From positions 1 to 64,000 of the forward strand of contig NZ_JOEA01000021.1 of assembly GCF_000719115.1 (NCBI RefSeq): a stretch of DNA of 64,000 bases, read 5' to 3'. The notes under the pieces were generated by a model. The model was not told the origin of the DNA and ran no database searches. It worked only from the letters and a program-made list of their open reading frames with translations. Shown here in pieces: positions 3,064-55,573 of the stretch. How positions within the stretch are numbered: position 1 is the first letter of the stretch; the number at the start of each line of letters is the position of its first letter. The DNA is from Lentzea albidocapillata. GTDB lineage: Bacteria > Actinomycetota > Actinomycetes > Mycobacteriales > Pseudonocardiaceae. The translations under genes were made by a program, and so were the position numbers.

Positions 3064-3096
3064 GCGCAAATACCGTGCTGTGTGGTGTATTTGCGC
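3064..3096. repeat. 10-bp inverted repeat between VOC and tyrosinase genes
   Basis: GCGCAAATAC (3064-3073) and GTATTTGCGC (3087-3096) are perfect complements around a 13-base spacer, 47 bases after the VOC stop and 45 bases before the tyrosinase ATG. It may be a terminator or a dimeric-regulator operator. The AT-rich core and wide spacer favour an operator, but this is not decided by the sequence. Confidence 0.5.
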
Positions 3097-3141
3097 GCGC
3101 CACCCGCCCTCCGCGAGTTATCCGCACAAAGGGGGCCCACG

Positions 3142-5826
3142 ATGGCTGGACCGGTCAGACGAAATATCGCCCACCTCACGCCAGCCGAGCGGCAGGCGTT
3201 CATCGACGCGCTGCTGCAGGCCGACCTGCACGCCTTCCCCGGAGGAGTGTCCTACTGGGACAAGCAGGACGAGATCCACCAGTCGACCCACAACCACGGC
3301 GGCAACTCCTTCCTGCCGTGGCACCGCGAGCTCTGCAACCGGTTCGAGGCGCTGCTGCAGCAGTCGAACCCTGATGTCGCCCTGCACTACTGGGACTGGA
3401 CCCAGGACCCGCGCGCCGCCTCCGACGGTCAGGGCGGCACCGTCGACCTCTCCTCCAGCACCCTCTACGGCACGATGAACGGAATGGTCGACGGACCGCT
3501 CGCCGCGCTGCACAACGGTGGCGTGCTCGCGGGCAGCCGCGAACAGACCGGAAACCCGGCCGATCCACCGCAATCCGTCCAGCGCAACGCAGGCGCCGGA
3601 GCACCGGAGATCAACTCCGACGCGTCGATCATCGGCAGCGCCGACGCCCTGGCCCAAGCCCAGCAGTGGGAAGCGTTCCGGAACGAGCTGGAGGGGTGGC
3701 ACGGCACCGCGCACGGTTACGTCGGCGGCGACATCGGTGGCCAGCACCAGGCATTCGAGGATCCGTTCGTGTTCCTGTTGCACAGCAACGTGGACCGGTT
3801 GTTCGCGATGTGGCAGGCGCAGCCGGGGCAGGACTGGCGGCTCGATCCGGACCAGGTGTACGGCGACCAGTCGAACACCACCGGACCCGGCAGCATCCTG
3901 GACCCGATGCAGCCCTGGAACGGCACCGTCCAGTTCGGCTCGCCGCTCGACCCGTGGGTCGGCGCATCGCCCGCCGTCGAGAGCAAGAACTGCCGCCACC
4001 CGTCCGTGGTGCGCCCGCCCTGCTACGACACCCTCCCGCTGACCGTGGAACAGCTCTCGCCCGTGGCCGGCGACCCGATCCGGTTCCTCGACGTCATCGA
4101 GCACCTGCCGACCGCCCGCGCGTTGCGGCTGCGTGTCCGCGGCTGTACCGAGGTGACCGCCACCGCGTCGGTGACCGCCCCGTTCACCGTCCTGTCCGCC
4201 TCGGTCACCTCGCCGCACCCCAACGGCTTCGAGGCCACCGACCTGCTGGTCTGGGTGCTCTACACGCCGGGCACTGCGGGCTCTGCGGATTCCGGCACGC
4301 TGACCGTCACCATCACCGAGACAGGCGACGTGTTCGCGGTCCCGGTGACCGCGACCGTCGTGCCGAACCCGACCGTCGGCACGTCGCTGGTCCTGGATCA
4401 GTCCGGCAGCATGAGTCTCCCCTCGGGCCTGCTTGGCAAGACCCGTATGGATGTGCTGCACAGCTCCGCGCCGCTGTTCGTCACGCTGCTCGATGACAAC
4501 GACGGCATCGGCGTCGTCCGCTTCGACACCGACGCAGCCGAAGCCGCCCCGGTCGACGATGCCGGTCCCATGATCGGCGGAACAGGCAGGCTCGCCGCTT
4601 CCACCGCGATCACCGGAACGCTTACCAACCCCGCCGGCCTCACCGCCATCGGCGACGGCCTGGAGAGCGCCGCCGCCCAGCTTGCACCGATCACGATGGA
4701 CTACGACCACACCGCCACCGTGGTGTTCACCGACGGCCACGAAACGGCCGACAAGACCATCGCCGCCGCCGCGTCCTCCGTGCACAGCCGCGTCTTCGCC
4801 ATCGGCCTCGGAACCGCCGACCAGCTCAACCCCGGCGCCCTGGCCGACATCGCCAACGGCACCGGCGGCTACCTCCTGCTCACCGGCAACCCCGGCGTGG
4901 ACGACCAGCTCCTGCTGCAGAAGTACTTCGCCCAGGTGCTGGCCGGAGCGACGAACGCCGCCATCGTGGTCGACCCCGACGGCTTCGTCCCGGTCGGCGG
5001 CAAGGTCGTCGTCCCGTTCCTGCTCACCGCCGCCGACATCCGCGCGGACGTGCTGGTGCTCGGTGAGACCGCAGGGGCTCTGCGCGTGGAGCTCATCGCA
5101 CCGGACGGCTCCACCGCGAGTCCGGTGGAGGTCGTCGGCGAGGCCTACCGCGTGCTGCGCGTGGCAGGTCAGGCGGGGGAGTGGCAGGCGGTGCTGTCCG
5201 TCGACGACCGCCAGCTCAGCAAGTGGATCACCGAACTGCGCAAGCGCCTCGCTGACCGCAAACGCGGCGGGCAGCTGTTCGAGCGGATCGTGACGGGGAT
5301 CAAGGCGCACGGCGTGCCGTTCACGTTGTCGGTTCAGGCCCGCAGCGCACTGCGGCTCGGCGCGGCGCTGAGCCAGGGCTCCCGGCTGCCCGGCACCCCA
5401 GCACACCTGACGGCGACGCTGACGGACAGCGGGATCCCGTTGTCCTCCGCGGCCGTGAGTGCCGTAGTGACCGGTCCCAGCGGAGGTCAGGCGGTCATGC
5501 CACTGTCCGGGCAGGAACCTGGGATGTTCGCTGTCTCGATTCCCACCGCGGAGCCGGGGGTGTACCGGGTGCTGGTCCGTGCGAGAGGCGCGGATCTGCG
5601 CGGCACGGCGTTCACACGCGAGGAGCTCCGCACTTTCGCCGTCTGGTCGCGAGGTGACCAGGCGCCTCCGCTGGTGATCGACCCCCGTCCGCGGCCGGGC
5701 CGCGATCTGGACGGCTGCGCGTTCCTGCTCTGCCTGCTGGAGAACGACGGCGTGCGCCGGCTCCTGGAACGGAACAAGATCGACCCCGACCGCGTCGCCG
5801 CCTGCGTCAAGTCCGCTTGTCGTTAG
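3142..5826 (+). CDS. Tyrosinase-domain protein fused to vWA domain
   Basis: This is an 894-residue multidomain protein. The ATG at 3142 follows GGGGG. Residues ~10-300 form a tyrosinase-type dicopper domain. Copper A has His46/His50 as candidates plus the His52-x8-His61 pair (GGNSFLPWH). Copper B has His187-x3-His191 and His214 in LLHSNVDRLF. Residues ~320-410 look like an Ig/CARDB-type linker. Residues ~414-600 form a von Willebrand A domain with the metal site DQSGS (Asp419, Ser421, Ser423). The remainder is beta-rich and ends in a Cys-containing tail. No signal peptide is evident. The copper-oxidase chemistry (phenol or catechol oxidation) is predicted from complete ligands. Substrate and location are unknown. 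A fusion of an oxidase with an adhesion or assembly module is uncommon. Confidence 0.85.
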   Translation: MAGPVRRNIAHLTPAERQAFIDALLQADLHAFPGGVSYWDKQDEIHQSTHNHGGNSFLPWHRELCNRFEALLQQSNPDVALHYWDWTQDPRAASDGQGGTVDLSSSTLYGTMNGMVDGPLAALHNGGVLAGSREQTGNPADPPQSVQRNAGAGAPEINSDASIIGSADALAQAQQWEAFRNELEGWHGTAHGYVGGDIGGQHQAFEDPFVFLLHSNVDRLFAMWQAQPGQDWRLDPDQVYGDQSNTTGPGSILDPMQPWNGTVQFGSPLDPWVGASPAVESKNCRHPSVVRPPCYDTLPLTVEQLSPVAGDPIRFLDVIEHLPTARALRLRVRGCTEVTATASVTAPFTVLSASVTSPHPNGFEATDLLVWVLYTPGTAGSADSGTLTVTITETGDVFAVPVTATVVPNPTVGTSLVLDQSGSMSLPSGLLGKTRMDVLHSSAPLFVTLLDDNDGIGVVRFDTDAAEAAPVDDAGPMIGGTGRLAASTAITGTLTNPAGLTAIGDGLESAAAQLAPITMDYDHTATVVFTDGHETADKTIAAAASSVHSRVFAIGLGTADQLNPGALADIANGTGGYLLLTGNPGVDDQLLLQKYFAQVLAGATNAAIVVDPDGFVPVGGKVVVPFLLTAADIRADVLVLGETAGALRVELIAPDGSTASPVEVVGEAYRVLRVAGQAGEWQAVLSVDDRQLSKWITELRKRLADRKRGGQLFERIVTGIKAHGVPFTLSVQARSALRLGAALSQGSRLPGTPAHLTATLTDSGIPLSSAAVSAVVTGPSGGQAVMPLSGQEPGMFAVSIPTAEPGVYRVLVRARGADLRGTAFTREELRTFAVWSRGDQAPPLVIDPRPRPGRDLDGCAFLLCLLENDGVRRLLERNKIDPDRVAACVKSACR

Positions 5827-6659: not shown

Positions 6660-8909
6660 TCATGATCGCGAGAACCCTGACGCCGCGGAGGAAGGTGTTG
6701 GTGCGCTCAAAGTCTGTGCCAGCACGGTTCCGGCGGTCTCGACGGAGGCCATGAGGACACCCAGCAGTGACTTCGGGATTGATCCGGCGTCGAGGCCAGC
6801 TCGGTCCATCAGGCCCTGCAACGTTCCGGCCTGGCCTGCTGTCATTCTCGTGCGGCATGTCGCGTGGTTCAGTAGTTCACGGGCGGCGTAGGCATCGGTG
6901 GAACGTTCGGCGTCCTCGATCAGCTCGGCGCACAGGGGGTCCGTTTCGACTTGCTGCGCCGCCATACAAAGGTCCAGCGCGGTGAGGCCGAGACGAATGC
7001 AGAACAGCGTTGTTGACCTGTCGGTGGGCTTTCGGGCGAGCCTGACCGCGGCGAGCGTGGCGGCAACGTCGTCGACGCTCAAGCGTCCGTCCTTCAGATG
7101 CGCATAGCTGCGAAGACAAGCCGCCAGTGCGTACTCGTGCGGCTCGGTCATCACGCTGCTGTCGATGAGCCTTAGTGCGTCGTCGACACGTCCGTTGGAG
7201 GCGTACGCGATGACGCGCGTCTGGCGGGATTCACGGAGCATCTCTTCGGCTTCGTCGTGTTGTTCCGCGTGTTCTGTGGCTTCTGTCCATTTGCCCGCGG
7301 CGGCCAGAGCTCGGGTGCCGTCCTCGCGCAGCAGTACCTGAAGCCAGCGATCGAGTTCGGATCGATCGCCGTCGGTGGCGATGAACTCGTCGAAGGGGAT
7401 CGACGTGCCGTGGATCGTGGCGTTGCCGCCGTGGCGGGCGGCTTGGTCGATCGCGTGAAGGGCACGGTAGGCGCCTTCGGGGTCGCCTGCCCGGCTGGTG
7501 AGGCGGGCGAGGTTGACCAGTGGCTGGAGCGAGGCGATGGCCGTGCGACCGGATACGGGCCAGGCGGCGTGGAAGATCTGAAACTGCCGCTCGCACAGTT
7601 CGACCGCTAGGTCGGGCAAACCGCAGTCGGCGGCGATCAATGCTGCCAGGTTCCAGACTGAACAGGCTCTGTCGATCCGGTCCTCGGGTTCGGCGGGGTT
7701 CTGGCAGGTATCGGCGAACTGGCGTACTTCGCGCACCCGTGCTTCCAGGTCGGCGCAGCGCCGACGGCCCTGAAGTACCAGCGGGAACCTCCTCATCGCC
7801 AAATCCGCGGCGGCTTCGGCTGCTGCGGTGAGAGTCACCTGTTGTGCCGAGCCCGCAGGTGGTGAAGCCGCTGGACCGGCGGTCGCTGCGGGGGTGTCCA
7901 GGATGGCGGAGCGAGCCGCCCAGGCGAGGATGCTCTGCGTCCTGGCGGGTAGTCCCAGGCGGTTCCAGTGAAAGATCACCAGATAGCTCACGACCTCGCG
8001 CAGTCCGCGCCGCAGCGTTCCTCTGCGAGCGGCGGACCCCAGGGTTCGGCCGGCCTGACGGAAGGCGTCCGCCCACTCGGCGGCGGAGGCCAGGGGGCCG
8101 TTCGTGCCCAGTAGCGGTCCGTCCGGCGAGACGTCGGCGAGCATCAACTGTTTGAGGTCGCCGGCCATCGCGGTCACCTTCGAGACCGGGACGTCAGCGG
8201 GGAGGTGCCGTTCCTGTGCGACTCGGTGCCAGACGTCGCCTTGCTCGTACCACTCCAGCCCGGCGGCGCGCATCAGGGTGGTGCACAGCAGAAGGGACAG
8301 CTCGCGGCGGCCGAGCCCGATTCCGCCGTCCCGGAGGAGATTTACGACGGCGCGGCTGTCGGCGCAGAACAGTTCGTGGGCGAGATCCATGCCCACCTGG
8401 CCACCGAACGCCATGGTCTCAGCCTCGTAGATGCCTGGCCGCCACCCGGTGATCTGGCCGTTGGCCGTGAGGTCGTCGAGCGCCGTACCGAAGCGGTGTC
8501 TCATGGTGCGCCCGGCCGATCCTGGTTGCAGGCGCAGTCGCCAACAAGGGTGTTTGCGCATGAACCACCACGCGGTGATCACGCCCTCGTCTTCGGCACT
8601 GTGGAGTAGGGGTGCGAGGTGATCGGCGACGGCGCGTTCCGCGTCGTGCCAGTCGGTGAACTGGATGTAGAGCTGCCACCAGCCGGAGGCGATCTGTTGT
8701 TCGAGGGCGTGCTGTCCGGCGCGCCGGTAGACCTCGGCGGCCTCTGCGAGATCCGCCGAGTCGAGGGTCTCGGCGCGGGCGGCCTCGGCCAGCGGTGTCC
8801 CGGTCAACACGGTGAGCACGGCGCGTTCGGTGGTGCGTACGACAGCCGACTCGTCCGTCGCACCGGCGGCTTGTGTCGAGGCTTGCGGAGCTAGTCGATC
8901 AGCAGACAT
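6660..8909 (-). CDS. LanB C-terminal (thiopep_ocin/SpaB_C-type) domain with helical-repeat extension
   Basis: This 749-residue protein has an ATG at 8909, overlapping the LanC gene by 19 bases. Residues ~60-310 match the stand-alone C-terminal domain of split lanthipeptide dehydratases: WWQLYIQFTDWHDAERAVADHLAPLL, then WWFMRKHPCWRLRL and ETMAFGG. In LanB enzymes this domain eliminates glutamate from glutamylated Ser/Thr. The following ~430 residues are Ala/Leu/Arg-rich paired helices resembling TPR repeats, as in many actinobacterial regulators, with no catalytic motif recognised. This extension is unusual for the family and could be a scaffold for the precursor or partner enzymes. It is the last gene of the cluster. 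Confidence 0.8.
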   Translation of the reverse strand: MSADRLAPQASTQAAGATDESAVVRTTERAVLTVLTGTPLAEAARAETLDSADLAEAAEVYRRAGQHALEQQIASGWWQLYIQFTDWHDAERAVADHLAPLLHSAEDEGVITAWWFMRKHPCWRLRLQPGSAGRTMRHRFGTALDDLTANGQITGWRPGIYEAETMAFGGQVGMDLAHELFCADSRAVVNLLRDGGIGLGRRELSLLLCTTLMRAAGLEWYEQGDVWHRVAQERHLPADVPVSKVTAMAGDLKQLMLADVSPDGPLLGTNGPLASAAEWADAFRQAGRTLGSAARRGTLRRGLREVVSYLVIFHWNRLGLPARTQSILAWAARSAILDTPAATAGPAASPPAGSAQQVTLTAAAEAAADLAMRRFPLVLQGRRRCADLEARVREVRQFADTCQNPAEPEDRIDRACSVWNLAALIAADCGLPDLAVELCERQFQIFHAAWPVSGRTAIASLQPLVNLARLTSRAGDPEGAYRALHAIDQAARHGGNATIHGTSIPFDEFIATDGDRSELDRWLQVLLREDGTRALAAAGKWTEATEHAEQHDEAEEMLRESRQTRVIAYASNGRVDDALRLIDSSVMTEPHEYALAACLRSYAHLKDGRLSVDDVAATLAAVRLARKPTDRSTTLFCIRLGLTALDLCMAAQQVETDPLCAELIEDAERSTDAYAARELLNHATCRTRMTAGQAGTLQGLMDRAGLDAGSIPKSLLGVLMASVETAGTVLAQTLSAPTPSSAASGFSRS

Positions 8910-10132
8910 GCGTCCCATCCGGAGATCGGCGCGACATTGTGCGCAGCGGTGTGCAGGGCCAGGGCGGTTCCTGTCTCACCCTCAAGAAGCCCTGTTCCGG
9001 CCTTAGCGATGGATCGCGTGTAAGGGATCAGGTTCTCGGCCAGACGCGGCAGGTGGTCGGTGAGCGCCGGGGTTCGGCTGTCCTGGGTGGCCCGCCACAC
9101 GGTCTGATAGATCCCGGCCCAGCCGTGGCACAACCCAGGGTCGGTGATTCGGGCCTGCTGTGCGGGGTCGTCGAGGCACCGGACCAGTGCTTGTTCGTAC
9201 TCCTGCTGGAGACGCACGTCGTTGGTTGCGATTCCGGCTAATTGCCCGGCACGGGCGATCCCCGGCGTGCCGTAGCACCAACTGGGGCGAGCCGGGCCAG
9301 GCTGGCTGGGGTGACCGCTGCGCAGGTCGGCCAGGGTGATCCATTCCGGCCACCACGGTCCGGCCTCGCCGTCCTGTTGCCAGGCATCGAGCCATCCGCA
9401 GATCGTGGCGATCGCCTCGTGGTGCCCGTCCACGGTGACCCCGCGCCGCATCGCCTGGCTCAGCAACGCCAGAGGGCCGCCGACCCCGTGTGCTGCGCCC
9501 AGGTTTCCGTGGCCGTCGCGGTAGGCGCTAGAGGACCGGCGGTGCGGATCGTGACCCACCCACCACCCAGGCAGTGCGTGGCTGTCGATCTGCAGTGGCA
9601 GAGTCAGCGCTACGAGGTAGTCCAGCACTCGCTGCATCGCGCTGCCGCCGGGATCGCGGCGCAGCAGCAGCGCACCGAGCCCGCTCAAGCCGAAAAACAC
9701 GTCATACTCGCGGAACCCAGGAAGTTCGCCTGCGCTGATACGTGCCATCGCGGACTCGACTCGCCGGTGCGCAAGCGCGGCCACGTGCACATCGACGTCC
9801 GCGAGGGCCTCGCGGTAGCGGCTGGTGGCGCCCGCTGCCGCCGCGTCGAGCATGAGCGTGACCGCCGGTGCGCCCAGGTACAGGCCGGTGGTGTTCGTGG
9901 CGCTGACCTGACCGGCCACCGCGTTCACGATCCAGCGATGGGCTTGCTGCCACGTCCCTGTCCCGGCGTGAGCGCGTTCGATGTGCAGCAGCGCGATCCC
10001 GGCAGCGCCTCTCGTGAGGGACTGAGCTACCCAGGGCTCGTTCTCGGGAGGCGGCCCCGGCAGCGCGAGTTGCTCGGCGTAGCGCTCGGCCGCTTCCGCG
10101 AGGGTGGCTGCGGGGTTCGTCAGGGCGGCCAA
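8891..10132 (-). CDS. lanC: LanC-like lanthionine cyclase
   Basis: This 413-residue LanC-family protein has all three zinc ligands: Cys286 in SWCYGTPG, and Cys335 and His336 in LCHGWAG. His215 in NLGAAHGVGG occupies the conserved GxxH position. The enzyme adds Cys thiols to dehydrated Ser/Thr to make lanthionine rings. The best start is a TTG at 10132 with GGAG about 9 bases upstream, immediately after the LanB stop; no nearby ATG precedes the conserved N-terminal helices. Genes on both sides overlap or abut, so translation is probably coupled. Confidence 0.9.
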   Translation of the reverse strand: MAALTNPAATLAEAAERYAEQLALPGPPPENEPWVAQSLTRGAAGIALLHIERAHAGTGTWQQAHRWIVNAVAGQVSATNTTGLYLGAPAVTLMLDAAAAGATSRYREALADVDVHVAALAHRRVESAMARISAGELPGFREYDVFFGLSGLGALLLRRDPGGSAMQRVLDYLVALTLPLQIDSHALPGWWVGHDPHRRSSSAYRDGHGNLGAAHGVGGPLALLSQAMRRGVTVDGHHEAIATICGWLDAWQQDGEAGPWWPEWITLADLRSGHPSQPGPARPSWCYGTPGIARAGQLAGIATNDVRLQQEYEQALVRCLDDPAQQARITDPGLCHGWAGIYQTVWRATQDSRTPALTDHLPRLAENLIPYTRSIAKAGTGLLEGETGTALALHTAAHNVAPISGWDACLLID

Positions 10133-10133
10133 C

Positions 10134-13100
10134 TCAATGTGCTCCGCGGCGTGCGGTGTGGCGCAAAACGCATGCCCGCGCGAGCCGGCCTGTGACCCGT
10201 TCGATGGCCGGGTCGACGCCGACTGCGCGAATGTGGTGCAGGTGCAGCAGTGATCCCAGGACGGACAGAGGGTTTCGCTGTTGCACCAAGTCTTCCCGAT
10301 AGGCGGTCAGCGCCTCGGCGCGCGCCTGCCACGCGGCCACGACGTGTTCTCCGCCGGGTAGAGAACGCAATGTCGTCCACGCGCCGTCCGGATCAGCCAG
10401 CTCCAGTGCCTGGTTGCGCAGTGCCGGATCGACCCGTCCGTGCTCTTGCCGAAGTTCACTGATCAGCCAGCCCAGTCCGTCGTGGGTTGTTCGCGCGAAG
10501 CGCACGGTGAGGTCGACCATGCTGGCGGCGGCGAGGGCCTGTGGATGGCCCCCGGTTTTGACCGCAGCGCTGATCTGGGCGAGTGCTGCGACCGAGTCGG
10601 TGGCGAAGACGTCCTGTGCGCGGTCCAGCGCGGAACCGTGGCCGTAGCGGCCGGTCTGGGGTTCGTGGGTGGCGAGAGTGAGATGTGAAAGCAGTCGGTC
10701 TCGGTGCAGGCTGTCCGCCCACGTGGCGACCCGTTCGGCGGCCGAGCCATACGCGGATGCGTCGGACAGACGCAGGTATACGGCGAGGTACTGGTCGACT
10801 TCGGGGCGGCGCATCTCGCGATGCCGGCGGAACCACCAGGGCGGCGCTTGATCGCCGAAGGCGTCGATCAGGCCCGGCACACGCTCGATCAGAATCTCGT
10901 CGAAGCGTGCCGGATGCCCGTAGATCTGTGCACAGAGGACCGTGGAATTCCCAGGAAGGTGGCCCGCGGTCCGAGTGACGGCGCGGGCCACACTCGCGAC
11001 GAACGAGGGGACTTCGGGCGAGGGCGCGTCCAGAACCAGGGGCATGAGCACCTCATGAGCGCGGCCCAACCAGGCGAGGTCCTTGGGTGCCGACGTTTCG
11101 CGGAGTTCGAGGCGGTCGGCGCGCTCCAGGCGGGTGCGCAGCAGAAGCCGGTGAAGTGGGTGACCGAGGTCCACCGGTTGCCGTCGGTCGTGGTCAACCA
11201 GCGCGACGCGCTCGGGTACGCGCCACCTGGCCCGCCAAGAATCCAGCCCAGCCTGCCACTCGGCCATCGAGGCGTCATGGCCCGGAAGATCACCAGAGGC
11301 GAGCAGCCACCGTGCCGGGGACAGAATGGTTCGCCGGTATCGAATCCGCGGAAGGTACGGGAGTTGGGCAGCGGCGCCGAAATGGAACGCCTTGTAGACC
11401 GCGGACCGTGCGGTGGTGATCTCGGCGAGGAACCTCGCCAACGGCGGCGTCTGAACCCCAGCCTCCAGGGCGTGGGTGACCCGCGGCTCGACCCGACGAC
11501 CGGTGGACAACTCGATGAGGTGGAACCGGCTCTCGTCCGTGGTGATCGCGAGGCCCGCCAACGGGATCAGGTGCTCGTCCGTTCCGCGGTGTTCGGCCAC
11601 GGGGATCACGTGCGGCAGCAGCTGCCCGGTGCGGGCCACGTTCTCATTGCGGCGCCGGCGCGGGGCAAAGGACAGTTGGGCGGCAATCGTGCCGGGCCCG
11701 GCCGCGGTGTAGGTACCCGCGAGAATCTCCCGGCCTTCGTCGGGCAGCAGGTAGGCGTGGCGACCGGCCATGCTGCTGCCAGGCCTGGGTGTTCCGGTCA
11801 TCGCCAACCCGAAACGCCCGCGCGCCAGCGCCTCGACGGACTCCGCCCGAACTTCCACGGCCACTTCGACACGAGGCGGAAGGTGCACCAGATCCGCACG
11901 GTCGCCGGCCGTCAGGTCCTCGATCACCTGATCGGTCAGCACGATCTCACCGCTACCGTCCATTATGGCCCGCTGGATCAATGCCAGGAGCTTCTCGTCG
12001 CGTTCACTCACCTTGCGCGCCGCACGCCCGTGTGCGGAGCCGAGATACTCGGCCGGAAGGCCGAGCCCGCTGTCGGCGACCAGCTCCAGCACCGGCACGA
12101 GCGCGCCGGTTCCGTAACGGGAACGAAACCGTGTGTGGTAGTCGCGCCACGCTGGATATCCGAACGCGTACGGGGAAAGGCGAAGCAGGACGCGGACGGC
12201 ATCGGAGGCTTCCTGAGCCACCTGTTCGGGGATCAGAACGTCACAATCCAAGATCGTGTCGACGACCAGTGGCACCTTCGCGGCGGTGCTCAACGCCCTC
12301 ATCCGATCGGCCACAGCCGACGTCGGCGCCACAGCTGATCCGCCGGTGGACAGGTCCCGGTGAATCGCGGTCAGTTCGTGCACCGTGCCCCTGATCTCGG
12401 CGATGGTGAGGGCGTCGGCGGCCTTCAACACCGCGCAGGCGTGGCCGAGCGCGTCCAGACCCGTCATCGGCGCCCACAGGCTGCTGATCAGTAGTCCTTC
12501 GTCGAGCAAACCGCGAAGCACGCGGTCGATCTGGTGCTCACTGGCAGTGGCGAACTGGCTCAGGAGCACAGCGCGCAGCGCGGCGAAAGGTATAGGTGCA
12601 CGGGCGGCTTCCAGTGCGGCGCGAACCGGGCGGCTGTGGCGCACGGACACCTCGACGGGGGCCAACGTTGTGGCAGCTCCGACCGGTGGTGACCCTGGTG
12701 CTGCGAATCGGTCACCTCGCACGGTTCCGGCGTCGTTGACGACCACGGGCAGCCGGTCCAGTAGCCCTTGGCATCGGTGCAAGCGGGTGAGAATGTCGCC
12801 GAGCCAGCTTGCGTCCGCTCGGACTGCGACTGAGTGCTCGCGGCCCCACTGAACCTTGGCCCCGGTCCCGATCCGGGCCATGCCGACCCCTGCGAACAGA
12901 CCGAACGGGGTGGGGCGCTGTTGCCACCGCACCAGATAGGACGCCAGCGAGAGCACGGCGCGGTGCATCGTCCGAGCATCGCGGCTCGGGGCGGACAGCA
13001 GGTCGTCAATCTGCCGGGACAAGGCGGGGCTGGCATGGACAACCGCGGCGCGAACATCCTCGCGCTGCCACACCTGCGACAACCACGTCTGGCATTGCTT

Positions 13101-13223
13101 CGCGGCGTCCTCGCCGGGCAAGTCCAGGGTCGTGGGCAGGTCCAGTCCGCCTGGATCAGTGCTGGCACGTAGTAGTGCCACGCCGGACCATCGATATACC
13201 GGTGATGCAGATGTGGCGGCCAC
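10134..13223 (-). CDS. lanB: Lanthipeptide dehydratase (LanB), glutamylation-domain protein
   Basis: The 1029-residue product carries the N-terminal LanB architecture: SLASYLVRWQQRPTPFGLFAGVGMARIG near the start, then LPRIRYRRTILSPARW and the long C-terminal domain with FARTTHDGLGWL near the end. This part uses glutamyl-tRNA to activate Ser/Thr of the precursor, while the elimination domain is encoded separately three genes later in transcription order. The GTG at 13223 is preferred because GAGGGGGAG lies 7-15 bases upstream; the longer frame to 13283 would read back through the attenuator. It is separated from the precursor gene by 78 bases holding a strong hairpin. Confidence 0.88.
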   Translation of the reverse strand: MAATSASPVYRWSGVALLRASTDPGGLDLPTTLDLPGEDAAKQCQTWLSQVWQREDVRAAVVHASPALSRQIDDLLSAPSRDARTMHRAVLSLASYLVRWQQRPTPFGLFAGVGMARIGTGAKVQWGREHSVAVRADASWLGDILTRLHRCQGLLDRLPVVVNDAGTVRGDRFAAPGSPPVGAATTLAPVEVSVRHSRPVRAALEAARAPIPFAALRAVLLSQFATASEHQIDRVLRGLLDEGLLISSLWAPMTGLDALGHACAVLKAADALTIAEIRGTVHELTAIHRDLSTGGSAVAPTSAVADRMRALSTAAKVPLVVDTILDCDVLIPEQVAQEASDAVRVLLRLSPYAFGYPAWRDYHTRFRSRYGTGALVPVLELVADSGLGLPAEYLGSAHGRAARKVSERDEKLLALIQRAIMDGSGEIVLTDQVIEDLTAGDRADLVHLPPRVEVAVEVRAESVEALARGRFGLAMTGTPRPGSSMAGRHAYLLPDEGREILAGTYTAAGPGTIAAQLSFAPRRRRNENVARTGQLLPHVIPVAEHRGTDEHLIPLAGLAITTDESRFHLIELSTGRRVEPRVTHALEAGVQTPPLARFLAEITTARSAVYKAFHFGAAAQLPYLPRIRYRRTILSPARWLLASGDLPGHDASMAEWQAGLDSWRARWRVPERVALVDHDRRQPVDLGHPLHRLLLRTRLERADRLELRETSAPKDLAWLGRAHEVLMPLVLDAPSPEVPSFVASVARAVTRTAGHLPGNSTVLCAQIYGHPARFDEILIERVPGLIDAFGDQAPPWWFRRHREMRRPEVDQYLAVYLRLSDASAYGSAAERVATWADSLHRDRLLSHLTLATHEPQTGRYGHGSALDRAQDVFATDSVAALAQISAAVKTGGHPQALAAASMVDLTVRFARTTHDGLGWLISELRQEHGRVDPALRNQALELADPDGAWTTLRSLPGGEHVVAAWQARAEALTAYREDLVQQRNPLSVLGSLLHLHHIRAVGVDPAIERVTGRLARACVLRHTARRGAH

Positions 13224-13257
13224 GTCGTGTCTCCCCCTCGGAGCTCTTACCGGACCC

Positions 13258-13295
13258 CTGCTGCTGCCGGTGCACAGTGGCACCGGCAGCAGCAG
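13258..13295 (-). terminator. Attenuator hairpin between precursor and LanB genes
   Basis: Arms 13258-13273 and 13280-13295 are 16-base perfect complements around a 6-base loop, directly after the precursor stop. Such partial terminators are a recognised way to make precursor mRNA in excess over enzyme mRNA in lanthipeptide operons. The position fits that role exactly. Confidence 0.8.
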
Positions 13296-13301
13296 CAGCC
13301 G

Positions 13302-13499
13302 TCAGGACGGGTCGTCTGCGAACGAACCGCAGCTACTGGCGTCGCCCTCGCAGGTGTTGCCGCAGCCATCGTCAGTGGGGCAGTCCCCCATGACCGGGCC
13401 GTAGGCCACGACGACCCGCACATCCAATGCGAACTCGTCGTCCTCGGCTGGCCGTTCGGCCAGCGCGGTCGCGCCGCCCGAAAACTGAACCTCCGACAT
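13302..13499 (-). CDS. lanA: FxLD-family lanthipeptide precursor
   Basis: This 65-residue peptide has an ATG at 13499 preceded by GAGGAGAG. The leader contains the motif FALD at residues 23-26 (the FxLD signature that should bind LanB), flanked by acidic residues and VRVVV. The putative core is rich in Cys, Ser/Thr and Gly/Asp: Cys40, Cys46, Cys50 and Cys57 with Thr42, Thr49, Ser55, Ser56 and Ser59 as dehydration sites. At most four thioether rings are possible. Several core Asp residues (39, 43, 44, 53) are candidate substrates for the neighbouring isoaspartate-type methyltransferase. No GG cleavage motif is present, so the leader cleavage site is not defined; a region around residues 34-39 is plausible. 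Confidence 0.9.
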   Translation of the reverse strand: MSEVQFSGGATALAERPAEDDEFALDVRVVVAYGPVMGDCPTDDGCGNTCEGDASSCGSFADDPS

Positions 13500-13513
13500 C
13501 TAGGCCACTCTCC

Positions 13514-14806
13514 TCACTCGGTTGGGTGTTGCAGGGCACCCTGACCTGCTGCGGTGATCGCCGCCTGCGGCCAGGAGATCGTGACCCGGCTGTGCTTCTT
13601 GTCGATGACACGTCCCTCGGACAACTGGTCGTCGGGGGTGCCAACCGGGTAGACGCGGAACTGCGGGCCGGGTCCACCTCGGTGCTCCCTGCCCCAGATC
13701 CGGAGCAGTTCGGCTACTTCCTCGCCGAGATCGTCGGCGTCGGGGCCGAAGGCGTGCACGCCCCACTCGAGGTTCTCCTCGTCGGCGCGACGGGTCGTCA
13801 CGTAGGCGAAGCTGCCGCCGGCAACGACGGCCGACGCCCCTGACTGCCGCCCCGGTGGGGTGATCACACCGGAATCGAGCTTGCGATCCAGCACGACGCG
13901 GCAGAAACCGGGCAGTGCCGACGCCAGCCACATGTGCGCGTCGGCCCACAACTCGAACCGCCCGATGGTCGCCCCGCTCCAGACCTCCACCCGCGGCGTG
14001 TCGAACAGACCCTGCAGCGCGGTCGCGTCGACAGGGAACTCGTCGTCGAAGCGCAAGGTGACCTCGCCCCCGCGCATCACCAACTGCTTGCCCTGGTGTG
14101 CTCCGGCGCCCTGCATCGGCACGAAGCCGAACAACCGCGACGACCTGCTGATCAGGAAACCATCGGCACGCTCAAACGCGAGCGTGCGTGACAGACCCCT
14201 TACCTGCAACGGAACCAGCAGGCGACCACCCTCGGCCAGCTGCGCGATCCAGGCAGGCGGGATATCCCACGTACCCACCGTGACCAAGATCCGGTCGTAG
14301 GGCGCGTACTCGGGCACACCACCCTCGGCGTCGACGAGGACGACATTCACCTGCGAGTAGCCGGCTTCCGCGAGCTGGCGCTCGGCGCGGTCGGTCACGT
14401 CTTTGTCGATGTCGACCGTGGTGACCTGACCGGACGGACCGACGAGCTCGGCCAGCAGCGCGGCGTTGTAGCCGCCCGAGCCGATCTCCAGGATCCTCAT
14501 GCCGGTGGTGATTTCCGCTTGCTCCAACATGTGCGCCTGGACCTGCGGCGCGGAGATGGAACTGGTCGCGTTCCCCTCCGCGTCCCGCTTGGTGACGAAG
14601 CCGTTGTAGCAGTGGTAAATCTCGTCCAGGTCCCCGCCTGGAGCGAACAACTCCCGGCGGACCTTGCGCATCGCCTCTTCAACCGGTCCCGAGACGATCG
14701 TGCCCTCGGCGATGAGGTCATCGACCACCTGCTTCCGAAGTTGCGCGGCGCGATCCGAGTTCGCAACCTCGCTAGCCGTGTCTTCGTGAGTCGTCCTGTC
14801 GGTCAC
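13514..14806 (-). CDS. PIMT-like methyltransferase, FxLD lanthipeptide system
   Basis: This 430-residue protein has a GTG start at 14806 following AAGGA. The first ~240 residues resemble protein-L-isoaspartate O-methyltransferase: the SAM motif I ILEIGSGG at 105-112, and a PIMT-type segment VTVGTWDIPPAWIAQLAEGGRLLVPL. The C-terminal ~190 residues are an extension typical of the FxLD-system methyltransferases. Related enzymes in lanthipeptide clusters methylate a core Asp, giving succinimide and then isoaspartate. The precursor begins 14 bases downstream, so both belong to one transcript. Choice of a later start rather than the frame start at 14947 rests on the ribosome-binding site and the loss of family-like sequence upstream. 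Confidence 0.88.
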   Translation of the reverse strand: MTDRTTHEDTASEVANSDRAAQLRKQVVDDLIAEGTIVSGPVEEAMRKVRRELFAPGGDLDEIYHCYNGFVTKRDAEGNATSSISAPQVQAHMLEQAEITTGMRILEIGSGGYNAALLAELVGPSGQVTTVDIDKDVTDRAERQLAEAGYSQVNVVLVDAEGGVPEYAPYDRILVTVGTWDIPPAWIAQLAEGGRLLVPLQVRGLSRTLAFERADGFLISRSSRLFGFVPMQGAGAHQGKQLVMRGGEVTLRFDDEFPVDATALQGLFDTPRVEVWSGATIGRFELWADAHMWLASALPGFCRVVLDRKLDSGVITPPGRQSGASAVVAGGSFAYVTTRRADEENLEWGVHAFGPDADDLGEEVAELLRIWGREHRGGPGPQFRVYPVGTPDDQLSEGRVIDKKHSRVTISWPQAAITAAGQGALQHPTE

Positions 14807-14939
14807 TAAGGGCTTCCTTGTCCTGGTGCGGTGCGGACGGTGAGAGGGGACGCCCTCGCGGTGCGTTCGAGGGCGGCAAGTCGTATCCGTGAGATTACTC
14901 TCAGCAACCGTTTGCGCCGGTTCGATCTGGGCGTGTCGG

Positions 14940-15251
14940 TCAACCATCGCGTCGCTTCTGGTCGAACCACCCGTCCCGAGCCTGGGGTGGTGGTCGGTGG
15001 GTCAAATGCCGGAGACGCTCGTGTAGGTCCGGAGGTACGAGATCGTCAAGCCGCAGTCCGATGGCTTGCGCGCGCTGCGCTGCGTCGCCGAACTGCGCGC
15101 AGGGCCAGGGTTGAACAGAGCAAAGCGGACATGTATGGGGCGTCTCTGGAGCTGGCAGATGCGCAGCGACGTCATCGACCGCTCGAGCAGCCCGCCCGAG
15201 TCGGCTGTCCGCTGCGACGATCACAGCTATGACGTTCCGTATCGCGCCCAT
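14940..15251 (-). CDS. Small hypothetical protein with Cys-rich CPLC...PWPC motif
   Basis: The 103-residue product contains HTCPLCSVQPWPCAQF followed by AQAIGLRLDDLVPPDLHERL. This pattern (CPxC-x4-WPC, then DLVPxDLH) resembles short uncharacterised actinobacterial proteins that I recall only as hypotheticals. The three closely spaced Cys could bind zinc. Start choice is uncertain and no strong ribosome-binding site is seen. It precedes the lanthipeptide operon in the same direction but is 133 bases away, and a link is not established. Confidence 0.45.
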   Translation of the reverse strand: MGAIRNVIAVIVAADSRLGRAARAVDDVAAHLPAPETPHTCPLCSVQPWPCAQFGDAAQRAQAIGLRLDDLVPPDLHERLRHLTHRPPPQARDGWFDQKRRDG

Positions 15252-16236: not shown

Positions 16237-17646
16237 TCAGGCTCTCTCGCCCACGCTGGCCAGCGCGCGGACCTGCTCGTCCAGCAGTTCGACGTGGTGC
16301 GCTGTGCTCAGGGCGGCACGCAACTCGGGTACACGCTGGAGCGCGGTGGCGTAGTGGGTACGGCCGACCACGTCGCACGCCTGCTGCGCCGTGGCGAGCG
16401 CTCGGTCAGCGTCGAGTGGCGCCTGCGCTGCAGCGAGGTCGAACAGTAGGACGGCTTGTTGCTTGCCGGCGGTCTCGGCGAGGGTGTCGACCGCCTGTTC
16501 CAGCCTGCATGCGGCACCGCGGTTCTGGCCCGCCAACAGCAATGCGTTGCCGGCAAAACCGTCGAGTCGAGAAGCATCGAAGTAGTCGAGCCAGACCGGA
16601 TCGGTTCCGGCCGTCGTCAGCGCGTCCTCGGCCGAGCGAATACGTGCAAGGCTCGCTTTCGGCTGGCCGGTGCGGGCGGATACCTCGGCATCAACGCAGT
16701 GCAGCCACGAGCGCAACAACGGCCCGGTGCCGTAGCGCGCGTGCGCATGCGCGGCCTTGAGAAAGCCGCGCGCAGGTTGTTCCTGCCCGGCGAAGCCAGG
16801 GACGAACGCTCGATGGGCCAGCACCGCGACCGCCAGAGCGTGATCTTGTGACGCAAAGGCGGCGTCCTCTGCCAGCTGAAAGAACGGTCCTGCGGCATCG
16901 GCACGGTTCAGATCGAAGAAGTTGAGACGTGAGGCGAGAAGGGAAGACTCCGCCACAGCGGCGGCCAGTCGCCTAGGCAACGGTCCATCGACGTCCGACA
17001 CCGACTCGAGCATGCCGGCGCCGAGCTGAACGTGCGCAGCGACGGACTGCAAGAGATCCGATGCCGGGGTGGTCCAGTAGAGCTCACGGTGCGAGGCGGT
17101 GATCGCGGAGTACGCCTCGATTGACTGCGGGTCCAGCCGAGTCCGCTGTTCCTTGGCCAGAGCATCGACGCCGTCGGGAATCGCGAGTCCGTTCGACAGC
17201 AACGCACCCAAGCTCAAACCGAGCAGCCCCTTCAGGAACACGTGTCGGCCAAACTCGGGTTTGCCGCCCAGCAGCACCAGGATCACCTTCTCCGCCACCG
17301 CATCGACGAGCTGCTCGCTCATGGGTATGTAGGTCGCTGCACTCGGGCCAGGTCGGTGCGTCGGACACATCGCCGACTCCTCCTCGGACAGCAGACCGAG
17401 TTCGTCGGCGAGCATTCCGAAGACCAACACGAGGTGCTTCCGGTACCGCGGCTCAGGCTTGCGGTCCCCGGTTTCCCATCGCCGAACGACATCCGCGTTG
17501 AGGCCCGGCCCCGCCTCGTCGCACTGCTTCATGCTCCGCTTGATCTGCTCCACCAGCTCCTCGCGACTCCACCCACGCTGGAGGCGTTGCCAGGTCAACC
17601 GGGTGTTCGGCGGGTGCTTGGGGGCAGACGTCCGACGTGATCCCAC
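16237..17646 (-). CDS. XRE-family regulator with TPR-like sensor region
   Basis: The 469-residue protein has an N-terminal helix-turn-helix (RLTWQRLQRGWSREELVEQI...VVRRWETGDRKPEPRYRKHL). A possible membrane-prone segment follows (FLKGLLGLSLGALLSNGLAIP), then about 280 residues of Ala/Leu-rich helical repeats typical of TPR sensor domains in Streptomyces-type regulators. GTG at 17646 is chosen because AAGGGA sits 8-13 bases upstream and the helix-turn-helix begins soon after. Longer in-frame starts up to 17769 add polar sequence without support. The gene is convergent with the HAD hydrolase. A ligand is not predictable. Confidence 0.78.
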   Translation of the reverse strand: MGSRRTSAPKHPPNTRLTWQRLQRGWSREELVEQIKRSMKQCDEAGPGLNADVVRRWETGDRKPEPRYRKHLVLVFGMLADELGLLSEEESAMCPTHRPGPSAATYIPMSEQLVDAVAEKVILVLLGGKPEFGRHVFLKGLLGLSLGALLSNGLAIPDGVDALAKEQRTRLDPQSIEAYSAITASHRELYWTTPASDLLQSVAAHVQLGAGMLESVSDVDGPLPRRLAAAVAESSLLASRLNFFDLNRADAAGPFFQLAEDAAFASQDHALAVAVLAHRAFVPGFAGQEQPARGFLKAAHAHARYGTGPLLRSWLHCVDAEVSARTGQPKASLARIRSAEDALTTAGTDPVWLDYFDASRLDGFAGNALLLAGQNRGAACRLEQAVDTLAETAGKQQAVLLFDLAAAQAPLDADRALATAQQACDVVGRTHYATALQRVPELRAALSTAHHVELLDEQVRALASVGERA

Positions 17647-17898
17647 CTCATGTCCCTTCGGTCGACTTGACGATGTCTCACCGTGCCCGAGCGTAGGAGC
17701 CGACACCGCCATTTCGCGACGCTGGTCGAGCCATGGACGGGCAACGGACGGTTCGTGGACGGTAGTCAAACGCAGCGTCTGGAGGTTTGATCAACGGTGG
17801 ACAACTACCAGGCGCGAACCTCGGGGGCGTTGACGATCGTGGGCGAGGAGCTGCAGGTGCCGACATGCGGGCAGCGAGTCTTTCGCCGCCCGGTCGCT

Positions 17899-18172: not shown

Positions 18173-19024
18173 CTACAACGACGCGGCGATGTCGAGCAAC
18201 ATGCGCCGGGTCTGTTCGGGCCCACTGGCCACGGCCTTCTGGTAATCCCAGAGCGTCAGGTACCGCGCCGTGCGCTTGCTGTTGTCGACGTACTCACCGC
18301 CGTCATGCTGCTCAAGGTAAATGATGTCAACCAAGGGCTTCGTGTCATAGCCGAAGATCGTGTAGTCATGCCCTTGGCCCATGTAGTAGCCGACATCGAA
18401 CGGCACGACCTGCAGCTCGACGTTCGGCCGGTCGATGGCCTCGACCAGCTTCATGATCTGCTTCTTCGTGACCTGGCCACCCTCGGTTCGGCGTAGCGCC
18501 GCCTCGTCGATGATGAACCAGAACTGCTGGTCGAGGTTGTCCAACACCTGCTGTCGTCCCAGTCGATTGGCTGTCGACTGGTCGATCTCCTCGACCGTCA
18601 ACGATGGCCGCCACGCGCGGGCGTTCGACCGCATGTACTCCTCGGCCTGCAGCAAGCCGGGGATCATGAGGGCCTGGTACGAGAAGTACCGGTTGCAGCT
18701 GGGCTCCATGTCGACCAGCAACTGAAGATACTGGCGAAACCGCGTGCTGAACGCTCCGCGCTTGGTGCGGCGGTTGCTCTCTGCCTGCAGGTCTCGCGTA
18801 TACGCCCGGTCGGCTTCGTTGGCGCCGACGTGATCGAGCAGCGCATTCAGCTCGATCAACTTGATCCCGCTTCCGGCTTCGATGTGGGCGATCTTCTGCT
18901 GGGTGCAGCCGAGCACCGCTGCGATGTCGTCCTGGGTCACGCCGACGGCTTCGCGCAGCCGAGCGAGCTGGTTGCCGAGGACGACCTTCATCACAGGCGG
19001 CGGCAACTGCAGGTGCTGCGTCAC
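18173..19024 (-). CDS. Scr1-type XRE regulator with DUF5753 domain
   Basis: The 283-residue product starts at GTG 19024, with GGAGGTG 9-15 bases upstream. An N-terminal XRE helix-turn-helix (LARLREAVGVTQDDIAAVLGCTQQKIAHIEAG) is followed by the DUF5753 region with IPGLLQAEEYMR, a Trp/Phe-rich core, LQVVPFDVGYY and DIIYLEQHDGGEYV. These are the hallmarks of Scr1 antitoxin-like regulators. It is followed by its DUF397 partner. The divergent promoter region carries perfect inverted repeats, suggesting autoregulation. Confidence 0.88.
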   Translation of the reverse strand: MTQHLQLPPPVMKVVLGNQLARLREAVGVTQDDIAAVLGCTQQKIAHIEAGSGIKLIELNALLDHVGANEADRAYTRDLQAESNRRTKRGAFSTRFRQYLQLLVDMEPSCNRYFSYQALMIPGLLQAEEYMRSNARAWRPSLTVEEIDQSTANRLGRQQVLDNLDQQFWFIIDEAALRRTEGGQVTKKQIMKLVEAIDRPNVELQVVPFDVGYYMGQGHDYTIFGYDTKPLVDIIYLEQHDGGEYVDNSKRTARYLTLWDYQKAVASGPEQTRRMLLDIAASL

Positions 19025-19095
19025 AGAGTCGTTCACCTCCACAGGGTGTCCGGTTGCGGAACGTGCACGCAATTCACCCAATCGGCGACAACCTT

Positions 19096-19177
19096 AATCT
19101 GTGTACACAAGTTATGGTTGGTTGCGCGGTAGCAGGTCCATAACCACGAGAGACCGGTGAACATGAGTACACAGATT
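19096..19177. promoter_or_regulatory. Nested inverted repeats in Scr1 divergent promoter
   Basis: AATCTGTGTAC (19096-19106) recurs as its exact reverse complement GTACACAGATT (19167-19177). Between them GTTATGG (19111-19117) pairs with CCATAAC (19139-19145), and TGTGTACACA (19100-19109) is itself a perfect palindrome. The set lies between the Scr1 gene and the plus-strand small genes. It is a strong candidate for cooperative repressor binding or looping. Confidence 0.65.
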
Positions 19178-19324
19178 ACCGTCGCTGCGATGATCACCGT
19201 AGTCGCCACAGCGGTTGATGGACGTCGTGAGCGTCCATCGCGCAGGCGGCGCACCGTCGCTGGTATCGATCTCCGTGTCACCGGTCGATCGGATCGACGG
19301 GTTCCGACGCATGACACCACTTGA
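19163..19324 (+). CDS. Short hypothetical protein
   Basis: A 53-residue frame begins with an ATG at 19163 preceded by GAGAG, giving a hydrophobic start (MSTQITVAAMITVVATAVDG) followed by an Arg-rich tail. It overlaps the next small gene by 14 bases. It could encode a small membrane peptide. Alternatively it is untranslated operator DNA, since the right arm of the 11-base inverted repeat lies inside its first codons. No family recognised. Confidence 0.3.
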   Translation: MSTQITVAAMITVVATAVDGRRERPSRRRRTVAGIDLRVTGRSDRRVPTHDTT

Positions 19325-19550
19325 GGCCACAGTTCCGGTTGTCGTGAACCTGACCCTGTTGCAAGCCGCAGTGCTCGCCAGGGCAGCGGTGGTGGTCACT
19401 TCCGCACTGGACTGCAAGGACGCGAACGCCGCCGCACAAGGGCTGCTCATGTTCCGCCAAGCCGTCGCGCATGCCGTATCGAACGACACGACGCACCACT
19501 CGACCGAACAGCTGCGGCCGGTCAATCGGCCTCGCCGCCGTGCCGGCTAG
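19311..19550 (+). CDS. Small hypothetical protein
   Basis: A 79-residue product starts at ATG 19311. The central region ([47 protein letters not shown]) predicts one or two amphipathic helices, and the tail is Arg/Pro-rich. It stands first in a plus-strand series leading to another Scr1-type regulator. No family was recognised and no strong ribosome-binding site is visible. Confidence 0.4.
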
Positions 19551-19570
19551 CCATCGAAAGGCTGGAGGCC

Positions 19571-19915
19571 ATGAGCAACCTGGTCTTGTTCGCGGGACTT
19601 CGTCAAAGTCTCGACGATCACCTTGAGCGGGTATCGCGTGTCGCCGTCGATGGTGATGCCGGATCTGCGCTGGCGGTGATGCGGCAGGACGTTCCAGGTC
19701 TGGTGGCCGCGCTGCGGGTGCTGGCCGACGAGCATCAGCCGGATGAGAACGGCTGCTGCAGGAAGTGCCGCAGCGGACCGTTCTGGCGCAGGGTGGCGGC
19801 GCCGTGCCGGATGCTGCTCAACGTGCACATCGCCGTCGGGGCGGCGATGGCGACAACACGCGCCTGCTCCAGTTCGCCGCGGCGGCACAGGTTACGAACG
19901 TCCTCATTGGACTGA
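19571..19915 (+). CDS. Small hypothetical protein with Cys motif
   Basis: A 114-residue product starts at ATG 19571, with AAAGG at 19557-19561. A helical N-terminal half ([15 protein letters not shown]...[19 protein letters not shown]) is followed by [20 protein letters not shown], a likely small zinc-binding knuckle. Proteins with an HxPDxxGxCxxCR pattern of this size are frequent next to regulators in Pseudonocardiaceae, from memory, without assigned function. It lies 46 bases before an Scr1-type regulator and may share its transcript. Confidence 0.6.
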
Positions 19916-19961
19916 AGTAGGTCGCCCTCGAAATCTTCTTACCAGTGCAAGGAACTCGGAT

Positions 19962-21223: not shown

Positions 21224-21231
21224 GATCCCCT

Positions 21232-53744: not shown

Positions 53745-53811
53745 CCGGACCAGCGCCGCAGGCGCGGAACCACTTCCGAACCGCCAAACCGACCCTTCCA
53801 GGAGTTTGACC

Positions 53812-55490: not shown

Positions 55491-55512
55491 GACATCAAGC
55501 CAGTCGCAGCAC

Positions 55513-55554
55513 TGGCGAGGGTGACGTCAGCCTGATCCGACGTCGCCCTCGCCA
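55513..55554 (+). terminator. Hairpin terminator after the metallopeptidase gene
   Basis: Arms 55513-55527 and 55540-55554 (15 bases, one mismatch) around a 12-base loop form a G/C-rich hairpin 22 bases after the stop codon. Confidence 0.65.
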
Positions 55555-55573
55555 TGTCCTAACAAAGGGAGTG

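What the first reader, a model, noticed from the sequence alone, without database searches (positions are those of the whole stretch)
6660..14806. Compact FxLD lanthipeptide cluster with isoaspartate-type methyltransferase and a helical-repeat-fused elimination domain
The sequence shows five coupled genes: PIMT-like methyltransferase, FALD-motif precursor, LanB, LanC and a split LanB C-terminal domain carrying ~430 extra residues of helical repeats. FxLD peptides with PIMT-type tailoring are known in outline but most products are uncharacterised. The extra repeat region on the elimination enzyme and the absence of a local protease or exporter set this cluster apart. The predicted product has up to four thioether rings plus a possible isoaspartate.
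Basis: partly seen in the sequence, partly recalled or inferred. Interest (0 to 1): 0.75.

Follow-up and report, generated by a model that had tools for sequence, protein, structure and literature searches.

The report
Lanthipeptide cluster with second, repeat-fused lyase
Five soil-bacterium genes look set to make a ring-knotted peptide; the odd large protein is not half of the main enzyme but a second lyase, of a kind that changes ring stereochemistry, fused to a helical-repeat partner that relatives usually encode separately: a new arrangement of a known pathway.

Summary
The five-gene FxLD-type class I lanthipeptide cluster is real, but its central claim is wrong. LanB (10134-13283 -, 1049 aa) is full length, with glutamylation and elimination domains, so the 752-aa protein (6660-8918 -) is not a split LanB half. 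Its residues 78-340 are a second glutamyl lyase with the syn-lyase signature published for CoiSA(ED)/SptBb: K122, R127, R129, E167, hydrophobic A170, no His base. Among 104 relatives the Lys is found in 102 (2 gaps) and Ala/Val replaces Arg826 in 104. Its C-terminal half is a TPR-like solenoid (AlphaFold pLDDT 91), usually a separate gene and probably the published 'CoiH' of unknown function. Of 130 such lyase genes it is fused in 10, next door in 68, not found in 47, unclear in 5. A missing protease is normal for coi/olv clusters. New here: the fusion, and a reconfigured lyase site in LanB. It lacks both Glu-carboxylate arginines (A834, Y836) but keeps R879 and H1014, a lineage trait (65 lost, 66 kept of 131 readable; about two changes on the tree). 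The syn-lyase may therefore do most elimination. A new variant of a known kind.

The parts
13514..14947 (-). LanSA-type methyltransferase (PIMT/PCMT family, FxLD system); ORF 477 aa, true start probably near 14806
   Evidence: TIGR04364 535.8 bits (cut-off 320), domain at residues 67-459; PF01135 1.6e-41; start inferred
13302..13499 (-). FxLD precursor peptide, 65 aa; FALD at 23-26; core ...DCPTDDGCGNTCEGDASSCGSFADDPS with C40, T42, D44, C46, T49, C50, S55, S56, C57, S59, S65
   Evidence: TIGR04363 50.5 bits, cut-off 30; positions; alignment with relatives
13256..13301 (-). stem-loop directly after the precursor stop codon (16-bp stem, no T-rich tail), before lanB
   Evidence: MFE -50.8 kcal/mol for the 76-nt flank, z -5.74, 0 of 200 shuffles as low; 95 of 117 precursor 3' flanks in relatives have an uninterrupted stem of 9 bp or more against 10 of 156 control segments inside lanB
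10134..13283 (-). full-length LanB: glutamylation domain plus C-terminal lyase domain (R784-eq A834, R786-eq Y836, E823-eq Q876, Tyr776-eq H821; R826-eq R879, H961-eq H1014, R966-eq R1019 kept); true start probably near 13223
   Evidence: PF04738 73-715 (3.2e-216), PF14028 783-1036 (5.2e-29); residues; alignment to NisB, MibB, MadB; start inferred
8891..10132 (-). LanC cyclase with WCYG and CHG motifs (C286, C335-H336)
   Evidence: PF05147 5.2e-39; motif positions; zinc-ligand role recalled
7899..8687 (-). second, syn-type glutamyl lyase domain (residues 78-340 of the 752-aa protein): K122, R127, R129, E167, A170, I315, R320
8688..8918 (-). N-terminal helical extension of the lyase protein (residues 1-77)
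   Evidence: AlphaFold helices at about residues 23-78 (model numbering shifted by 3); found in 58 of 65 nearest lyases of LanBs that lost the Arg pair and in 1 of 53 of those that kept it
6660..7886 (-). C-terminal TPR-like alpha-solenoid (residues 345-752), fused here, a separate neighbouring gene in most relatives that have it; probable CoiH homologue
   Evidence: AlphaFold pLDDT 91.4, pTM 0.87; weak TPR/PPR hits below cut-off; fused in 10, separate in 68 of 130 lyase genes

Best explanation
This is a coi-like class I lanthipeptide cluster. LanB binds the FALD leader and uses Glu-tRNA to glutamylate core Ser/Thr (inferred from the family). Glutamate is then eliminated by two lyases: LanB's own C-terminal domain, whose carboxylate pocket is altered, and the N-terminal domain of the 752-aa protein, a syn-type glutamyl lyase that would give (E)-dehydrobutyrine at Thr. 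LanC closes the thioether rings. By homology to mCoiA1 these are T42-C46, T49-C57 and C50-S59, with C40 free for a fourth ring. The methyltransferase then esterifies Asp44 inside ring A, giving a succinimide and isoaspartate. The helical-repeat half of the 752-aa protein is a CoiH-type partner, elsewhere its own gene, that most likely holds peptide and enzymes together; that role is inferred only. Leader removal and export use unlinked proteins (inferred).
For: Family hits for all five genes. The signature Lys with K-x4-R-x-R spacing, the hydrophobic residue at Arg826 and the missing His base match what PMC9486935 and PMC9011353 report for CoiSA(ED)/SptBb (residues). D-allo-L-MeLan was found experimentally for SapT and mCoiA1 in those papers. 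The fold of the lyase half matches LanB lyase domains. Gene order is conserved. The helical half is fused or adjacent in 78 of 130 lyase genes; the lyase is fused to the methyltransferase in 24, 22 of which have the helical gene beside them. The core TxDGC is conserved.
Against: No product of this cluster is known. CoiA1 T57S was poorly processed and some syn-lyases may be Thr-specific, while the equivalent site here is Ser59, so where the syn-lyase acts here is unclear. R784/R786 loss in LanB makes its own lyase activity doubtful. CoiH's sequence was not at hand, so the identity of the helical half with CoiH rests on gene order. The helical half was not found at 47 of 130 lyase genes, so it is dispensable for the family chemistry. 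Three loci have a helical-half match without a detected lyase.
Confidence: 0.86

Rival explanations
1. Functionally split LanB hidden in a full-length one: in this lineage LanB only glutamylates, its lyase domain is a structural remnant, and the 752-aa syn-lyase does all eliminations, including those at Thr42 and Thr49.
For: LanB lacks both carboxylate-binding Arg, has Q for E823 and H for Tyr776. All 65 LanBs of this type on the tree have a lyase of the extra kind within 9 kb (in L047 a frameshifted one); of 66 LanBs with the pair intact 53 do (one of them, L199, without the syn signature) and 13 do not. Four relatives (L195, L208, L214, L215) have a LanB without any detected lyase domain beside a lyase-methyltransferase fusion. 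CoiSA(ED) alone dehydrated all three Thr when CoiB's lyase was inactivated.
Against: Arg826-eq and His961-eq stay conserved in LanB (93 and 100 of 105), which speaks for a working site. NisB R784A still gave a 7-fold dehydrated product, and R51A/R53A were not critical in CoiSA(ED). CoiC could not close rings on three presumed (E)-Dhb. Only about two changes on the tree, so the association is lineage-level. An insertion with a conserved Arg (R826 of this LanB; Arg in 49 of 80, gap in 24) beside the pocket could replace the lost arginines.
Confidence: 0.33
2. The extra lyase-fold domain catalyses something other than glutamate elimination, such as a [4+2] pyridine-forming step.
Confidence: 0.04
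3. One reading: a true split LanB with the 752-aa protein as the missing elimination half.
For: The 752-aa protein does carry PF14028.
Against: LanB has its own PF14028 domain in the same ORF, as in most relatives.
Confidence: 0.02
4. The helical half is a regulator or sensor of the RRNPP/TPR type rather than a biosynthetic partner.
Confidence: 0.08

Closest known systems
coi cluster of Streptomyces coelicolor A3(2) (CoiA1, CoiB, CoiC, CoiSA, CoiH; PMC9486935)
   Same: Class I precursor with a TxDGC-type core, full-length LanB, LanC, PIMT-type methyltransferase, second syn-type lyase, extra protein of unknown function, no protease
   Different: Lyase fused to the helical protein instead of to the methyltransferase; LanB lyase lacks the carboxylate Arg pair (the paper says CoiB has conserved Arg residues there); core has an extra Cys before ring A and Ser instead of Thr at the third acceptor
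olv cluster of Streptomyces olivaceus (OlvSA; seen through passages of PMC9486935, PMC13001092, PMC7268733)
   Same: LanB, LanC, PIMT homologue giving isoAsp in ring A; an additional N-terminal Cys (same place as C40 by inference)
   Different: No second lyase and no CoiH in olv
spt/SapT split LanB (SptBa/SptBb; PMC9011353, PMC9890492)
   Same: SptBb is a syn-type lyase with Lys in place of Tyr and no His base
   Different: There LanB is truly split; here LanB is full length
Class I clusters with full LanB plus extra elimination-domain protein (Walker et al. 2020, PMC7268733)
   Same: Described as a group, including fusions to PIMT
   Different: No mention, in the passages that I read, of the helical-repeat fusion or of the altered LanB lyase site

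Membership tests
FxLD / coi-like class I lanthipeptide cluster | FxLD leader precursor | tested here: met
   TIGR04363 50.5 bits, cut-off 30
FxLD / coi-like class I lanthipeptide cluster | FxLD-system PIMT-type methyltransferase | tested here: met
   TIGR04364 535.8 bits, cut-off 320
FxLD / coi-like class I lanthipeptide cluster | full-length LanB and LanC | tested here: met
FxLD / coi-like class I lanthipeptide cluster | conserved TxDGC core | tested here: met
   TDDGC at residues 42-46
FxLD / coi-like class I lanthipeptide cluster | CoiH homologue | tested here: inconclusive
   Helical half matches the gene beside 22 of 24 lyase-methyltransferase fusions, the place expected for CoiH; CoiH's own sequence not available
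syn-glutamyl lyase (SptBb, CoiSA(ED)) | conserved Lys where anti-lyases have Tyr | tested here: met
   K122; 102 of 104 relatives, 2 gaps
syn-glutamyl lyase (SptBb, CoiSA(ED)) | hydrophobic residue instead of Arg826, no His base | tested here: met
   A170, I315; 104 of 104 Ala/Val and 104 of 104 Ile/Leu. A His two residues on (H317) is present in 82 of 104
syn-glutamyl lyase (SptBb, CoiSA(ED)) | two Arg for the glutamyl gamma-carboxylate | tested here: met
   R127, R129; 100 and 103 of 104
syn-glutamyl lyase (SptBb, CoiSA(ED)) | syn elimination giving (E)-Dhb / D-allo-L-MeLan | not testable with these tools
   needs expression and stereochemical analysis
canonical anti-lyase domain of full-length LanB (for 10134-13283) | Arg784/Arg786 pair and Glu823 | tested here: not met
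   A834, Y836, Q876
canonical anti-lyase domain of full-length LanB (for 10134-13283) | Arg826 and His961 | tested here: met
   R879, H1014
split LanB | glutamylation and elimination on separate polypeptides | tested here: not met
   PF04738 and PF14028 in one ORF
TPR repeat proteins (for the helical half) | repeat profile above Pfam cut-off in the window's copy | tested here: not met
   best TPR_12 18.6 bits against 30.1; some of the other 42 members match TPR models down to E 1.1e-5
TPR repeat proteins (for the helical half) | TPR-like solenoid fold | tested here: inconclusive
thiopeptide [4+2] pyridine synthase | azole-forming partners (YcaO) in the cluster | tested here: not met
   none in the five genes or among 30 other window ORFs scanned with Pfam

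The most novel reading that the evidence does not exclude
In a whole actinobacterial lineage of FxLD clusters the full-length LanB has become, in effect, a glutamyl transferase only, and a syn-lyase, here carrying its own helical docking arm, does the eliminations. This would be a split dehydratase disguised as an intact one, with products whose MeLan rings, including the isoAsp-bearing ring A, have the rare D-allo-L configuration. Alternatively LanB's altered pocket works on a different acyl group.
Probability: 0.28. Interest if true: 0.65.

Novelty: new variant of a known kind. Interest (0 to 1): 0.46.

Why it matters
The paper that surveyed syn- and anti-lyases predicted the full-length LanBs all to be anti-lyases (PMC9486935, section 9 read). 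In 65 of the 131 LanBs readable on my tree the two arginines that hold the glutamyl carboxylate are gone. That makes it directly testable whether LanB or the extra lyase sets ring stereochemistry in these clusters; Walker et al. [quoted passage not shown] The lyase-solenoid fusion ties the nameless helical protein of these clusters to the lyase step. It also shows what lies behind the database name 'thiopeptide-type bacteriocin biosynthesis protein', which misleads here.

Tried and rejected
Split-LanB reading: rejected. Pyridine-synthase reading: kept as a weak rival. Complementary half-sites (R786 in the extra lyase rescuing LanB): dropped, because the extra lyase keeps its arginines equally where LanB has them. 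C40 pairing with a Ser two before C57: not supported as a co-varying pair, since a Ser/Thr there is also present in 31 of 39 matched precursors of the Arg-kept group that lack the extra Cys. Significance of the lyase/Arg association: only about two changes on the LanB tree and four on the lyase tree, and the independent-pairs test had no informative pair, so no statistical claim is made. Helical-half function by fold: best Foldseek E 2.1e-3, not decisive; no solved-structure profile match at E <= 1. Full-length model has pTM 0.58, so the domain arrangement is not known. No promoter-like site found by the consensus scan. Three loci (L149, L155, L156) have a helical-half match without a detected lyase; of their neighbours I scanned three ORFs of L149 and five of L156, which gave no RiPP domains. 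L047 and L143 have frameshifted lyase ORFs, read only as pieces.

Limits of the counts: loci were drawn in four ways (by the 752-aa protein, the methyltransferase, the helical half, LanB), so counts are not prevalences. The 104 lyases and 105 LanBs hold a few copies of the same record (for example L002/L159, L005/L158). Five loci of the LanB draw repeat earlier ones (list of duplicates). The 131 rows hold two pieces of one gene (L047), hence 130. One search scored lyase presence by signature and missed those with an insertion (L142, L144); the figures here use the recount. The N-terminal extension was first counted by locus (61 of 70, 1 of 51) and recounted by nearest lyase (58 of 65, 1 of 53). 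In one search the search pattern itself allowed only Asp or Asn at the conserved place, so Asp conservation is given, where the column was free. Controls are coding segments inside lanB, not intergenic ones. Rows dropped: identical lyase pieces merged (8 groups); hits under 80 bits or 180 residues; N-domains under 150 bits or 450 residues and near-copies; flanks under 70 nt or identical.
Full report
WHAT IS THERE. On the minus strand, in order of transcription: methyltransferase (ORF 13514-14947), precursor (13302-13499), LanB (10134-13283), LanC (8891-10132) and a 752-aa protein (6660-8918). Curated models: FxLD methyltransferase 535.8 bits (cut-off 320) and FxLD precursor 50.5 bits (cut-off 30); LANC_like 5.2e-39. 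LanB carries PF04738 at 73-715 and PF14028 at 783-1036 in one ORF. So LanB is not split, and the 752-aa protein, which carries its own PF14028 at 80-337, is an additional lyase-type protein. Its closest relative found is from Lentzea albidocapillata subsp. violacea (94% in the best segment, residues 1-752 matched), so the genome is probably a Lentzea. In the window's own genome this is the only FxLD precursor match and, at E <= 1e-60 with 5 of 13 candidates scored, the only PF04738 match.

IT IS A COMMON ARRANGEMENT. A scan of the genome-contig collection with the 752-aa protein gave 189 relatives, of which the best 80 were kept. In most of these the order methyltransferase, precursor, full LanB, LanC, lyase recurs, across Streptomyces, Amycolatopsis, Actinokineospora, Actinomadura, Nocardiopsis, Frankia and others; exceptions are contig ends and clusters where the methyltransferase is fused to the lyase. 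Walker et al. 2020 already describe class I clusters with a full-length LanB plus an additional elimination-domain protein, often fused to a PIMT (PMC7268733, passages).

LANB'S OWN LYASE SITE IS ALTERED. In the window LanB, Arg784 is A834, Arg786 is Y836, Glu823 is Q876 and Tyr776 is H821, while Arg826 (R879), His961 (H1014) and Arg966 (R1019) are kept; the glutamylation residues equivalent to NisB Y80, R83, R87 and T89 are present (Y116, R119, R123, T125). Of 105 LanB lyase domains 42 keep both arginines, 62 have lost both and 1 is unreadable; Arg826 is kept in 93 and His961 in 100. A draw of LanBs from 197 genomes of the class gave 41 lyase domains in the 47 regions fetched, 39 readable (five loci repeat earlier ones): 10 lost, all 10 with a syn-lyase nearby; 29 kept, 17 with and 12 without a syn-lyase. 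Four loci have a LanB with no lyase domain detected beside a lyase-methyltransferase fusion (L195, L208, L214, L215). On a tree of 139 LanB N-domains: 65 lost, 65 of them with a lyase of the extra kind within 9 kb; 66 kept, 53 with and 13 without (one of the 53, L199, lacks the syn signature); 6 with no lyase domain detected, 2 unreadable; about two changes. Two other traits follow the same lineage: an N-terminal helical extension of the lyase protein (58 of 65 lost, 1 of 53 kept), and an extra Cys two residues before the ring-A Thr of the precursor (43 of 45 lost; 1 of 40 kept with lyase, which saw 102 precursors that fit its pattern; the olv-like group without lyase also has it in part). So this is a distinct lineage of the pathway, not proof of correlated evolution. 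Against inactivity: NisB R784A still makes 7-fold dehydrated peptide (PMC4341554, passages), CoiSA(ED) tolerates loss of its arginines, and Arg826/His961 stay conserved.

PRODUCT. By homology to mCoiA1 (Cys47-Dhb43, Cys55-Dhb50, Cys51-Dhb57) the rings would be T42-C46 around Asp44, T49-C57 and C50-S59, with C40 able to form a fourth ring with a remaining Ser or to stay free. Asp44 is Asp in 124 of 129 aligned relatives. Because the third acceptor is Ser59, whose dehydroalanine has no E/Z form, any D-allo-L-MeLan in these three rings must come from T42 or T49. The PIMT step (Asp ester, succinimide, isoAsp) is described for OlvSA in papers that I read in passages (PMC13001092, PMC10787088, PMC7268733).

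EXPRESSION FEATURE. A 16-bp stem-loop follows the precursor stop directly (z -5.74). The same position holds a stem of 9 bp or more in 95 of 117 relatives against 10 of 156 control segments inside lanB, with unlike stem sequences in most of the examples printed. The terminator scan found no T-tailed stem there, so it probably stabilises the precursor message or limits read-through into lanB (inference; recalled from other lanA-lanB junctions).

VERDICT. The cluster is real and well placed in a known family. The split-LanB claim is wrong and the missing protease is ordinary. The lyase-solenoid fusion and the altered LanB site are new variants, as far as my searches show, and worth a direct test.

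Noticed in passing
13256-13301 (-) and the same place in relatives: Strong stem-loop between precursor and lanB: stems of 9 bp or more in 95 of 117 precursor 3' flanks; no T tract after it in the window.
   Followed up: partly
L195, L208, L214, L215: LanBs of about 560-760 aa with no lyase domain detected beside a lyase-methyltransferase fusion and a helical gene: the syn-lyase may be the only lyase there.
   Followed up: partly
L149, L155, L156: Helical-half (CoiH-like) gene or fragment without a detected lyase nearby; in L149 it overlaps a phage-integrase-like ORF.
   Followed up: partly
16237-17769 (-): NsdA-family TPR-like regulatory protein (NF053720, 173 bits, cut-off 75), second gene upstream of the cluster.
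   Followed up: no
18173-22116: Three HTH_31/DUF5753 regulators in 4 kb.
   Followed up: no
3082-5826 (+): 914-aa protein joining a tyrosinase domain to a von Willebrand A domain.
   Followed up: no
24959-27145 (-): GmrSD-type restriction enzyme with a C-terminal DUF7662.
   Followed up: no
53806-63551: DprA-like protein, Replic_Relax protein, coupling-protein-like and TraG/TraC-like ATPases and an M23 peptidase: probably part of a conjugative element.
   Followed up: no
L047, L143, L005: Extra lyase broken into pieces in L047 and L143; in L005 a stop codon separates lyase and helical half that are fused in its relatives.
   Followed up: no
L199 13985-14932 (+), L212 2166-3095 (-): Lyase-like proteins that lack the syn signature (Arg for Lys, Asp for Glu823-eq), next to LanB clusters: a further kind of extra lyase.
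   Followed up: no
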